This document shows positions 54,662 to 60,600 of a stretch of DNA of 64,000 nt, in pieces (within the stretch, counting starts at the first letter, position 1; every line of letters begins with the position of its first letter). The notes below the pieces were generated by a model, which did not search any database, was not told the DNA's origin, and saw only the letters and a program-made list of their open reading frames with translations. The stretch is from Tubiluchus corallicola (lineage: Eukaryota > Priapulida > Priapulimorpha > Priapulimorphida > Tubiluchidae), in the NCBI GenBank assembly GCA_030141605.1, contig JAQGDQ010000293.1, forward strand, positions 186,001 through 250,000. The letters run 5' to 3'. Made by a program: the position numbers and the translations under genes.

Positions 54662-57600
54662 TCATGAGTCTAATTTAGCTAGTTCACTGGTGTAGACGCC
54701 GATGCTTTCCATATCAAAGAGTACGAAAAAGATCTGTTTCAGTGATGATGACATGGTAGTTACGAAGTAATTCGAGATCGCTTTCAAGATGATCTGTGCT
54801 GCCGTCTGCTTGGGAAAGCCATTACTACAGAAACATAACAATATAATGATTAATATGCAAAAAAACAGACAAGTTCTACATCAAATACAAATGAATAAAG
54901 TCAAAGCTGTTTAACCCTCATGTAAGGCCACATGAATTAATGTGAAGAATGAAGATGCTATGAGAAAAGTCCTGTCAATATGTGTGCCAATATAAACCAG
55001 ATTCATCTAGTTGCACAAACACACACAAAACTTTATTGCTGACTACTTTTCTCTGTACCCTGTGTTGTGACATTTTTAGATTAAACTTAGAACAAACTTA
55101 AATTAAACTATCTAAGTTTAAGCTAAAAATTTTGCAACACAGTGTACGGAAAAAAGCAGTCTGCAATAAAGTTTTGTGTGTTTGTGCAAATAGATGAATC
55201 AGTTTTATGTTGCTACATAACAGGACTTTTAAACCAGTTAAAACTGGTTCATCTTGAAGATTTTAACTGAAACCTGGCAGGTGAGAAAATGAATAAATTT
55301 TAGATAAATAATCACCTGTTATACTGTAAATGAAATTCAAGTTCGTGAATTATGAGTTTATAACTTGAACTCGTAAAGCAGTCCACAACATATGCCTAAA
55401 ACATCTGACCATGGAAGTCATTTGTTAAAAACTAAACCGTTGACAATGGCTTATTTATGTATTACAAACAATGACGTTGGATCAGCATGGTTAAAAACAG
55501 TTGCAAATGCTATCATATTTATTTATTCAAATTATCTCTGTTAAGCTGAGGTATCTCAGTAATTACCATTGCGCTACAGAATATTATCCTAACTAAATAT
55601 AAGAGTTTTGAGAAGTGGCTTATGCACATTAAATAACGTGCAAGTTTAAAATTTGCTCACAAAAGTCACTAAATCCCAAACTGTAAGGACAGTATTCAAA
55701 CAGAGTGTAAACCCGGTTATAACTCTCCCCTTTTATAATTCCAAGTTCGCTCGACGACAAAATTTTTATGAAAACAATACATCTATATTTGCATTGACAT
55801 GTATGTATTAATGCACCTCGTAATGCTAAACACGCTATAATGCCAACTTAATTTGCAGTCCAAAAGTAGGCGGTATAAAGAGTGATATATATTGATTTGT
55901 ACACCAGAAAGTATTTATAAGATTAATAATAAAGTAAATAAATCTAAAATAAAAACTATGTTATTTTCTCTACTAGCCTTGCCTTTTCATGTACCATTCT
56001 CTGTCAATAAGCTGATAAAAGTGCATTATTTCTATAAAATTGCATTTACATTTGCATATAGCCTGCATAATCCAACTAAATTTTTGATGTGTGCAGTGAC
56101 GAAATATCAACATTGCAAATTAGTTCACTATAATTGTAGAAAATCAATAATTATATCTAAGACAAATACAAACAATGAAGAAAGCGAAAGCACAGCACAG
56201 CAAGCAGTGAGATCTTTTACCGTAGCAATGCCATTATAAATGTATGTATGAAAGAACTGTAAACCAGCAAACCTAAATGATCAGGTTTGTACGATAGAGA
56301 AGCAACTAGAAACTACAATAGTCTGCAGCAAACATTTTCACATCATACCATTTAGTTCTAGAAAATTAACTTAAAATAATCCGGATGTTTACAATAAGTA
56401 AAACAAACTTTGTGAACTTGATTTTGATACTCGAAAATTTGATGCAAAGGAGCTTTGAAAAATCAGGAAAATAAAAAATTATTTAACAAATTTAATAAAA
56501 AGAATATCTTTGACAGCAACTGAAAAACTAATAACAAACAGTATGGCCAAGATTAAGGAGGTCCCTTTCCGAATGACTTTTCAACAAATAGCTTCAAAAT
56601 TAAAAATTAACATGCGGGACAAACGTTGTAAACGAAAATGAGGTACGCTGACAAGAGTTCATGTTTGTTACAAAATCTCACGCTTAAATGTCACCCATCA
56701 CTATTGAACACAGCAGTGACAGCACTCAAAAAGCAGCAGAAGGAAAAACAAAAACAAAACAAAAAGACATTTAATGATATAAAGAAAGATGTATTCACAC
56801 TGCAAAATGGCTTTATAGCTGCTTACACTATACAGATAAGTTTAACATGTCAATTTAGCTTATCAATTTCATATATAAAAAAACTGCAACCAAAACCACG
56901 CGTGTAGTGCAACACCACAAACAAAGCACATTATGCCAAATATGGGTAAACCCAGCGGTGACAGACACATTTTTTGCAAACACTATCCCAGTGGCACAGG
57001 ACACGATCTTTGCTTACCGTCCGCTGGAAATCGAAGGAATCGACAAAGATTTCAAACCCTTCTCTTCTGCCAAAACCAGACAATTTTTCACTGTCTTCTC
57101 TAGTAGTTGTTGGGAATTAGCACTATTCCAGCTCGGGCTGTTACAGTGAATGATGTATCCAGCATTGAGGCTGGTGCATTGATCGATAGCGGCTGTAAAA
57201 TTAGGTGACACTGTGACAAGTCTTTATCAAACATTGACATTTTCTGTAAATCTGTTAATATGCTAGAATATGGGCTACATTGTAAAACAGCAAAAACACC
57301 GCCTCCTCTTTCAGTTTTAGCAACTATTAGAGTTCTCATGACTTGGAAATCCTTAAATAGGCGAAAAGAGGAACTGTAGGCAGGAGTAGGTCAAGTGACC
57401 CAACGGCCATGTGTAGAGGAGTAAACTTTCCAAATCAGGAGTGGAGCCCCGAAGGCGGAAGAGTGGAGCATGCTCACAGACTCCGGCAGCTCCTGCAGCC
57501 AACCTGGTGCCAAACCTATCACTCCGTTTTCCTTGGGACTACACCAGCGAGGAAGAAAGGGGGTTCCTGTTGTCTGGGCAACTCAGGATCTCCATACACC

Positions 57601-60600
57601 TTGCCCAGAGGCCACTCCAGTGTCACTGCTCCTGTGACAGAAACAACACAGGAGGCACCAGTTACAAATTATAAGCCTAGAGCGAACTGGCTTGAGGGCG
57701 CTATGGGCTGTCTAACTGCCGTTCAAGGATCGGGACTTCTCAGCCACACTCGACGCTGCAGCTCACATCAATGTGATCAATAACTGACTCTCTTGGCACA
57801 CACTCTATTGTCTTCCGAGACAGAAGGAGGCAGGAGTAGCTCATCTCCTTGATATTTGCCTAATGGTATTAAAAATCACCACTCACGTGCAAAAAAAAGA
57901 AACTGATGATCTGACATGACAATATCCAGTTTTTGAGACAAATGCTATCGTAACTTTTCTGCAAATAGCAACAAACAACCTCTTTATGATGAACGCACAT
58001 CCTTCTATCCCATAATTCAATAGGTTTGTTAACAAATGAGTGAATATGTTTCAAAAACAGTCTCCACCAAATTCTGCCATGGTATAAAGGCTCATGTAAA
58101 ATTATCCTCAGAATAAATACAGAAGTGCAAATTTAATATGCTGCTAATCAACTAAAAATTTAAACATATCCAAATGAGTGATGAGAATTAAACCAAGTGA
58201 AGACGATATCGAGTTAAACAACAAGGAAGATGCTACAAACCAAACTGTGATAAGGAATTATGAATTGACCGGCAAATACAGCTGGAGCATAGAAGAAAAA
58301 TAGACTCTACCAATAAATTTGAAATGTTAAGAAAAGATATTTAACATGATTTGAATATGAAAATGAATTTACTAACAAGTTAGGATACGACGGTGCTCAA
58401 GGGTTGATCAAGAAAAACATAGTGGCCTGGGGATTTACATAAGCCAGTAGGAAGCGACAAGAAAGTAATTCTACTTAAAAGAACAGTACCTTTATAATAA
58501 CAAAACAAACATTAAGTACTATGCACTGGGCACTGTCTTTGTCGTAACCAGCTAAGCTAATGTTTGTAATGGAAACAACAAACCAACAAGAAAATTGAGC
58601 AAAAGCTGCTAAGGTTTCAGCAGTGCTTGACAGCTAATAACAATCGCAACAATGCTGACACCAGGTCAAGGTCAATTCAACAAAACAGCAAGGCAATCAA
58701 CGAATGGTTGCCCATCAGGGGAGAACTAAACTGAGTCAAATTGCTCCTGGGTGGACTAGAATTAAACACATTGAAACACAGAAACGTAGACTTGACATGA
58801 AAACCTGAAGTTGACCGGATGACCAACTCTGACCCATATAGCTAGGTAAGCGCTAGCCTACAATCAAATGAGGAGTACAAAAATAAATAAAGGGTTAATA
58901 GCTAGGTAAACTTAATCATCACTGCTGCTGTGCTGTGGCCTGCACCTCCGCCAGACTTACGCTCCATACGACATCGCAGGAACAGCAACAGATTTTAAAT
59001 TTTTCTCGTCTGCAAGGGCCATGCAGTTCCGTATGCATTTTTCCATTTGTTGCTGGGCATTAGTGCTGCCCCACTGTGGTGGGTTACAATGTATGACGTG
59101 TTTGGCTAAGAAATTATGACCGCCACAAATAGCAGCTGAAACGTAAATAGTTAAGTAAGAAACTCACAAAATTGTCAAGATTATCTCTCTAATTGCCTGT
59201 TATCTCTTATAACAATGAAAAAACTGCAGCCATGTTAATTCTACTAAGACATTGGTTGAGCTAGCCTTAATTACGACAGTTGATACGACAATTAAAACGA
59301 TTCTACATCTAAACATGTTTTATGCATAAATAGTTCAATATCTCTGTCTACTTTTTCACTGATGCAAAATCAAAAACTTCTGAAAATTATTTGGTTCATT
59401 GTAACATTTTTGGCTGAGCTAGCCTTAATTACGACAGTTGATACGACAATTAAAACGATTCTGCATCTAAACATGTTTTATGCATAATTAGTTTAATATC
59501 TCTTTCTACTTTTTCACTGATGCAAAATCAAAAACTTCTGAAAATTATTTGGTTCATTATAACATTTTCACTTTGTACATCAATTTTTTACAACAATTAC
59601 TGCCGGTTTCATCTTCCGTAATTGTCCTGTGTTTTTCCGTTGCCTCACGGAAACATTCACAATTTTCGAAGCATTTGTATAGGTTTTACACATCAAATGT
59701 AGACACTGGAAAGTTCTAATGTGACTGCGGTAAGTCAAATGTAGACATAGGAATTTCGAATGTGTTTCGGTAACTCAAATGTGACTTAGGTAAGTCAAAT
59801 GTAGACATAGGAATTTCGAATGTGTTTCGGTAACTCAAATGTGACTTAGGTAAGTCAAATGCAGACGTAGGAATTTCGAATGTGTTTTGGTAACTCAAAT
59901 GTGACTTAGGTAAGTCAAATGTAGATGCGGTACTTTGAATAAATCGGTAATTAACTCATTTAAGTGCAAGTTACAAAAAGATAAACCAAAGATAGTCATC
60001 ACCTCTTTCATAACTTTGAAAAATGCGTTGTTTATCCTCAAACTAAATTCTTTGATAAACTATAACGTCGGTAGAAAAGAATAAATTGGTTCCCACTTCC
60101 CAATGAACACTGAATCACTAATTAGTTTTTTAAGTAACGCATTACCACGGCATTAATGAATTTGTTTCTCACAAGTAACATTGTTTATTTTAAGAATTTA
60201 TTGTTTTCTCTAACAGTTACAATGGTATAAAAAGTTTACAGAATATTAGTAGACCTATAAAGTTATTATTTTCACAGCAATTATTAAATTAAGTTTAAAG
60301 GAGATTATTATATTTAACATCCTTAAGCTTTACCACCTATCCACATTTGAGATACCAATGTCACATTTGACTTGACATGTGTCTACATTTGATTTACCAA
60401 AAATGCTTAAGATTTCTTGAAAACCATTGTTAACACATTTGAACTACCTTAGTCTACATTTGAGTTACCAAGACACATTTGAATTACCTAAATCTACATT
60501 TGAGTTAACGCAGGTCTACATTTGACATGTAAGACCCATAGAACGTCAGTTAAAAGGAAAAACATCATTAGAAAACTCATCTCAAAGTTTTAAATTGACA

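What the first reader, a model, noticed from the sequence alone, without database searches (positions are those of the whole stretch)
57018..59135. Mutually exclusive macroH2A exons at a position different from the vertebrate pair
Two exons of exactly 175 nt with identical phases encode alternative versions of the same macro-domain segment, about 47% identical. Each keeps a different half of the vertebrate consensus: exon a keeps the GGH...AKHVIHC part, exon b the EKTVKNCL...SSGR part. In vertebrate macroH2A1 the known 1.1/1.2 switch affects the preceding segment (HPTN...GEVG here), which is single-copy in this gene. If real, this lineage evolved its own splice switch on the other side of the ADP-ribose pocket, probably turning ligand binding on or off through the SSGR/SYGA loop.
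Basis: partly seen in the sequence, partly recalled or inferred. Interest (0 to 1): 0.85.

Follow-up and report, generated by a model that had tools for sequence, protein, structure and literature searches.

The report
Alternative macroH2A exons, non-vertebrate position
This animal's gene for the chromatin protein macroH2A carries two alternative versions of one exon, at a different place in the ADP-ribose-binding domain from the switch known in vertebrates, which suggests that such a switch arose more than once; no RNA data were available to prove it.

Summary
The gene is a macroH2A on the minus strand: an H2A fold just upstream of the window, a basic linker and a macro domain. Two 175-nt internal exons (a, 59135-58961; b, 57192-57018) have the same phases, consensus splice sites and open frames, and match the same human macro-domain segment. 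They agree at 27 of 57 codons; synonymous sites are saturated while nonsynonymous change is restrained, so both copies were kept by selection. Including both, or neither, shifts the frame, as expected of mutually exclusive exons. The segment that differs between human macroH2A1.1 and 1.2 lies in the preceding exon, for which no second copy was found. So the location claim stands. The 'on/off' claim is only partly supported: both reported critical glycines (G224, G314) remain in both isoforms. Exon b has the human-like diphosphate loop (SSGRN). Exon a has SYGAN; tyrosine there occurs in 0 of 31 bacterial macro domains examined. Exon b instead changes a conserved turn (GH to CT). The 'each keeps a different half' pattern is not statistically significant. 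No RNA or second species could be examined. Hox genes (labels from memory) suggest a spiralian. Best read as a new variant of a known kind.

The parts
63455..63712 (-). macroH2A exon 3 of the model: end of H2A-like domain ([21 protein letters not shown]) and basic linker
   Evidence: reading frame and splice sites; Pfam Histone and Histone_H2A_C over the joined upstream exons
62508..62570 (-). 63-nt exon, linker to start of macro domain ([21 protein letters not shown])
   Evidence: sequence (borders read there; one search used slightly different borders); alignment to 1zr3
60790..60970 (-). 181-nt macro-domain exon, no second copy found; covers the segment that differs between human macroH2A1.1 and 1.2; 1.1-like loop AGEVG with the G224 equivalent, no 3-residue insertion
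   Evidence: genome searches
58961..59135 (-). alternative exon a, 175 nt ([16 protein letters not shown]...VPAMSYGA)
57018..57192 (-). alternative exon b, 175 nt ([16 protein letters not shown]...IPSISSGR)
54662..54824 (-). last coding exon ([20 protein letters not shown]...AKLDS, stop)
   Evidence: joins both alternative exons in frame

Best explanation
The gene is the only macroH2A found in this genome and carries an old tandem exon duplication that is spliced in a mutually exclusive way. It gives two histones that share the H2A fold, linker, first part of the pocket (G224 loop) and C-terminal part and differ only in residues 257-315 (human numbering), which include the diphosphate-binding loop. 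Exclusivity is most simply enforced by frame: the 175-nt exons enter at phase 1 and leave at phase 2, so a transcript with both stops at bases 50-52 of exon b, 123 nt before the last junction (expected target of nonsense-mediated decay), and one with neither stops in the last exon as a truncated macro domain. A trans-acting splicing choice between the exons is inferred. Isoform b, with the human-like loop SSGRN, is the likelier classical ADP-ribose/PAR binder; isoform a, with Tyr at 313 beside the phosphate, probably has altered or weaker binding. Shown: gene, exons, phases, frame consequences, signs of selection on both. Inferred: use of both in transcripts, decay of mis-spliced forms, change of ligand binding. 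Probability of the exon pair being real and exclusive about 0.85; of the stated direction of the binding difference about 0.4.
For: Equal length, phases and GT-AG sites; saturated dS with dN about 0.5; codon position 2 more conserved than 3, and 0 of 10,000 neutral simulations retaining both frame and identity; end-to-end macroH2A matches of both isoforms and Pfam Macro at 105 bits (a) and 96 bits (b); H2A-fold exons upstream at contig positions 252704 and 250864; no other copy found; donors of a and b at the 97.8th and 99.7th percentile and acceptors at the 92.5th and 88.4th of all GT/AG on the minus strand of the window (generic weights recalled); frame break and stop positions. The three published prediction criteria for such exons are met (PMC3228551 passages; there 90 of 16,180 annotated non-exclusive fly X exons share them). 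Residue 313 is T/S/A in 31 of 31 bacterial macro domains, S in exon b, Y in exon a. PARP catalytic-domain exons are present in the genome, so ADP-ribose signalling probably exists here.
Against: No transcript data. No second species, so conservation of the pair is untested (no relative; one bacterial macro domain). Both critical glycines remain in both isoforms, which argues against a simple off state. Exon b departs from conserved positions too (260, 262, 263, 279) and its Arg315, though human-like, is in 0 of 31 bacterial domains, while exon a's Ala315 is in 19 of 31, so b may not be the better folded or binding form. Isoform a scores slightly higher than b against Pfam Macro. The introns are 1.65, 1.77 and 2.19 kb, so steric interference is unlikely to enforce exclusivity, and no pairing elements linking the introns were found at the settings used.
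Confidence: 0.72

Rival explanations
1. Both exons are real and exclusive, but the switch does not gate ADP-ribose binding: both isoforms bind, and the swap changes protein partners or stability through the turn at residues 260-268 and the stretch 280-300.
For: G224 and G314 kept in both isoforms; S312 and A315 of exon a are common in bacterial macro domains (31 and 19 of 31); exon b changes the 260-263 turn and has N279; differences are spread over the whole exon (20 informative positions, no significant clustering).
Against: Tyr313 lies in the diphosphate loop and is absent from 31 of 31 bacterial domains examined.
Confidence: 0.4
2. One of the two exons is a dead or barely used relic that still looks intact.
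For: No RNA was available; exon a and exon b each depart from near-invariant macro-domain positions.
Against: Saturated dS with retained frame, splice sites, length and codon-position signal; 199 of 5,000 and 208 of 5,000 neutral copies stayed open at all, none of them with the observed identity.
Confidence: 0.07
3. The exons are alternative terminal exons or belong to two tandem genes rather than an exclusive internal pair.
For: These are known false-positive classes of sequence-only prediction (PMC3228551 passages).
Against: Each exon has its own good donor and joins the one 3' exon in frame; no other macroH2A exon was found between them or elsewhere in the genome, apart from one weak 26-residue match.
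Confidence: 0.03

Closest known systems
Vertebrate MACROH2A1 1.1/1.2 mutually exclusive exons
   Same: Mutually exclusive internal exon in the macro domain of the same histone; swap touches the ADP-ribose pocket; the vertebrate switch decides PAR binding (passages of PMC8232725 and PMC6277393).
   Different: The human segment is about residues 198-226 (with the G224 loop; 3-residue insertion in 1.2); here it is 257-315, holding the diphosphate loop, and the human-type segment was found once and is 1.1-like.
Vertebrate macroH2A2 (separate gene)
   Same: Its pocket also differs from 1.1 at the loop that binds the distal phosphate, by two proline insertions (PMC8232725 passage); whether this is the same loop as the one swapped here was not tested.
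   Different: Separate gene, not splicing; no insertion here.
Mutually exclusive exon clusters in general (PMC5740500, PMC3228551, passages)
   Same: Equal length, conserved phase, homologous, inside a folded domain, double inclusion shifts frame.
   Different: No RNA validation here. In the passages read, H2AFY (macroH2A1) is the histone gene named as an example.

Membership tests
macroH2A histones | H2A fold + basic linker + C-terminal macro domain in one gene | tested here: met
   Pfam Histone and Histone_H2A_C on the N-terminal part, Macro on both C-terminal forms; exons in order on one strand
macroH2A histones | closest solved relatives are macroH2A macro domains | tested here: met
   the first 8 PDB sequences are macroH2A macro domains for both isoforms, two of them as fusion constructs
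Mutually exclusive exons (sequence criteria of PMC3228551) | similar length, compatible splice sites and same reading frame | tested here: met
   175/175 nt, GT-AG, phases 1 and 2
Mutually exclusive exons (sequence criteria of PMC3228551) | sequence homology | tested here: met
   27 of 57 codons identical
Mutually exclusive exons (RNA criteria of PMC5740500) | junction reads bridging each exon, none joining both except where frame breaks | not testable with these tools
   no RNA-seq; frame break on joining shown
Vertebrate macroH2A1.1/1.2 switch | alternative copies of the segment between LFLGQKL and GNTLEK | tested here: not met
   only one copy of that segment found in the genome
Vertebrate macroH2A1.1/1.2 switch | one isoform loses the G224 glycine / gains the insertion | tested here: not met
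   both isoforms share the AGEVG loop without insertion
Exclusive splicing by competing RNA structures (docking/selector) | complementary elements between introns of the cluster | tested here: inconclusive
   no inverted repeat of 20 nt or more (exact seed 12) links different introns; only within-intron ones; shorter or weaker pairings not tested, no relatives to test covariation

The most novel reading that the evidence does not exclude
A non-vertebrate lineage, probably spiralian, independently evolved a splice switch in macroH2A that gates ADP-ribose/PAR binding from the diphosphate side of the pocket: isoform b (Ser313) binds and isoform a (Tyr313) does not, a convergent counterpart of the vertebrate 1.1/1.2 switch reached through a different exon.
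Probability: 0.3. Interest if true: 0.82.

Novelty: new variant of a known kind. Interest (0 to 1): 0.6.

Why it matters
The vertebrate macroH2A1 splice switch links NAD/PARP metabolism to chromatin. A second switch in the same histone, on another exon and in another lineage, would mean that splitting macroH2A into two macro-domain forms has been selected more than once, and it would give a natural variant series of the diphosphate loop that can be assayed directly.

Tried and rejected
Rejected: pseudo-exon (neutral simulations); tandem genes or terminal exons; assembly duplication (47% identity); the vertebrate pair being the same exon.

Led nowhere: relatives in viral contigs (none) and in prokaryote genomes (one bacterial macro domain, L021, used as a starting point). 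Tree of the 59-residue segment with human and 11 of the 31 bacterial domains: the groupings a+b, a+human and b+human are not distinguished (AU p 0.51, 0.23, 0.62), so whether the duplication predates the split from vertebrates is open. QKI-like ACTAAY and RBFOX-like TGCATG sites (motifs recalled): none within 300 nt on either side of the four exons tested. A mollusc haemocyanin family search was uninformative (nothing found, controls silent too). Two papers most likely to bear on novelty (macroH2A evolution, NSMB 2021, recalled; macroH2A beyond vertebrates, Epigenetics 2016, cited in PMC6189284) are not held. In ten paper searches I saw no title or start of abstract that describes this exon pair; several lists were capped (for example 20 of 60, 10 of 79). 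I saw passages, not whole texts, of ten papers: PMC12153100, PMC6189284, PMC5011920, PMC3156773, PMC8232725, PMC4030884, PMC6277393, PMC5770377, PMC5740500, PMC3228551; term look-ups in PMC9741552 and PMC9013439 returned no passage. One annelid histone study kept a single transcript per gene, saying that alternative splicing leading to different proteins is rare in histone genes (PMC12153100), so such pairs could have been missed.

Full report
What is there. The minus strand at the end of the window holds all but the first two coding exons of a macroH2A gene; the start-codon exon (MSGRGGKKRSK...IEYLS) and the second exon (AEILELAGNAARDYKRG...EELNQ) lie just outside, at contig positions 252704 and 250864 of the 294-kb contig C1918. 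Pfam finds the histone fold and H2A C-terminus in the first part and Macro in the last part. Window exons are 63712-63455, 62570-62508, 60970-60790, 59135-58961 (a), 57192-57018 (b) and 54824-54662 (stop).

The two exons. Both are 175 nt, enter at phase 1 and leave at phase 2, and have canonical GT-AG borders. Donors of a and b rank at the 97.8th and 99.7th percentile and acceptors at the 92.5th and 88.4th percentile of all GT or AG on the minus strand of the window, using generic weights that I recalled (in that call the row for the 63-nt exon used a border one base off and is ignored, and the last exon has no donor). Each isoform matches human macroH2A1.1 over its whole length. The exons agree in 27 of 57 codons; dN is about 0.46-0.53 and dS is saturated. 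Drift without selection to the same divergence kept the frame open in 199 of 5,000 runs from a and 208 of 5,000 from b, none of them with the observed amino-acid identity; one run in 10,000 reached the identity, with a broken frame. Hence both copies have probably been under selection for a long time. In human numbering (anchored on G224) the swapped segment is 257-315. Identities to human there are 29 of 59 (a) and 33 of 59 (b), against 28 of 59 between a and b; the constant exons are 33 of 61 and 40 of 53 identical to human. The age relative to the vertebrate split is not resolved.

Why exclusive. Joining a to b shifts the frame and stops at bases 50-52 of exon b, 123 nt before the last junction; omitting both stops at bases 39-41 of the last exon. 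The first product is an expected NMD target, the second a truncated macro domain (inference). The published sequence-only criteria for mutually exclusive exons are met; in the fly X chromosome 90 of 16,180 annotated non-exclusive exons shared them (PMC3228551 passages). The introns (1,654, 1,768 and 2,193 nt) are too long for steric exclusion (inference), and no inverted repeat of 20 nt or more at the settings used connects different introns. The choice mechanism is therefore unknown; frame plus a trans-acting factor is the simplest proposal.

Location against vertebrates. The PDB chains of human 1.1 and 1.2 (1zr3, 1zr5) differ only from just after LFLGQKL to GEVG/DDLG. Here that stretch is in the 181-nt exon, 1.1-like (AGEVG, no insertion). 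Genome searches with the two isoforms found the four exon places; isoform a also gave one weak 26-residue match elsewhere (C529, E 0.62), which covers part of the alternative segment, not this one.

Function. G224 and G314 are reported as required for PAR binding (passage of PMC6277393; G224E and G314E abolish it, passages of PMC5770377). G224 is in the shared exon and G314 in the alternative exon, and both are present in both isoforms; but the human 1.2 chain also keeps G314, so its presence does not prove binding. In 31 bacterial macro domains (the 30 loci delivered, best-scoring first, from 101 genomes of one phylum, 67 of which had a match, plus L021), residue 312 is S in 31, 313 is T/S/A in 31, 314 is G in 31 and 315 is A in 19, V in 10, I in 2. 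Within 312-315 exon a (SYGA) departs from that set by Tyr313, exon b (SSGR) by Arg315, which it shares with human 1.1. Just outside, exon a has Met at 311, where 31 of 31 have Ile (exon b Ile). Residue 260 is T/S in 31, 262 is G/A in 31 and 279 is G in 30 of 31; exon a keeps 262 and 279 (260 is Cys), while exon b has D260, C262, T263 and N279. So each isoform departs from the consensus at different sites. That exon a weakens phosphate contact is inference; the sample is bacterial and biased to high-scoring domains. The 'different halves' idea failed significance (8 against 12 positions; p 0.09-0.25).

Organism. Genome 343.5 Mb, window 34% GC. Homeodomains in it look like lab, pb, Hox3, Dfd, Scr, Antp/Lox5, a Lox4/Lox2-like gene and two posterior genes like Post-1 and Post-2 (labels from memory; 14 of 37 matches were fetched), which points to a spiralian. 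PARP catalytic exons occur at several places (15 matches) and macro-domain matches at two other loci (not identified further).

Verdict. A well-supported candidate for a mutually exclusive exon pair in macroH2A, at a position that I saw described in none of the listings or passages; transcript use, phylogenetic spread and ligand effect remain untested.

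Noticed in passing
window 59672-60546: Intron upstream of exon a holds a dispersed element with complementary arms and tandem 60-bp units; 39 other genomic places (all that were scored, of 859 candidates) match about 640-850 bp of it at 87-93%, so it looks like a foldback-type repeat.
   Followed up: partly
window 57378-57835: The intron between exons a and b contains a dispersed repeat of about 450 bp with 39 other places scored (of 1,866 candidates), many at 94-96% over 226 bp.
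   Followed up: partly
window 21038-33899, + strand: Exons of a DEAD-box helicase closest to DDX46/PRP5 (one 50-residue stretch tested). From memory, human DDX46 and MACROH2A1 lie in the same band of chromosome 5, so this may be conserved linkage.
   Followed up: partly
window 27647-28989: Minisatellite of 21-bp units, about 63 copies.
   Followed up: no
window 25962-26510, - strand: Open frame whose sequence looks like the end of a non-LTR retrotransposon reverse transcriptase (resemblance recalled, not tested).
   Followed up: no
window 54983-55217: Imperfect inverted repeats (arms 76 and 46 nt, 86% and 85% complementary) in the last intron of the gene.
   Followed up: no
G000 contigs C510 and C1717: Two other loci with exons matching Pfam Macro; not identified, and not matched by the macroH2A queries at E <= 1.
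   Followed up: no
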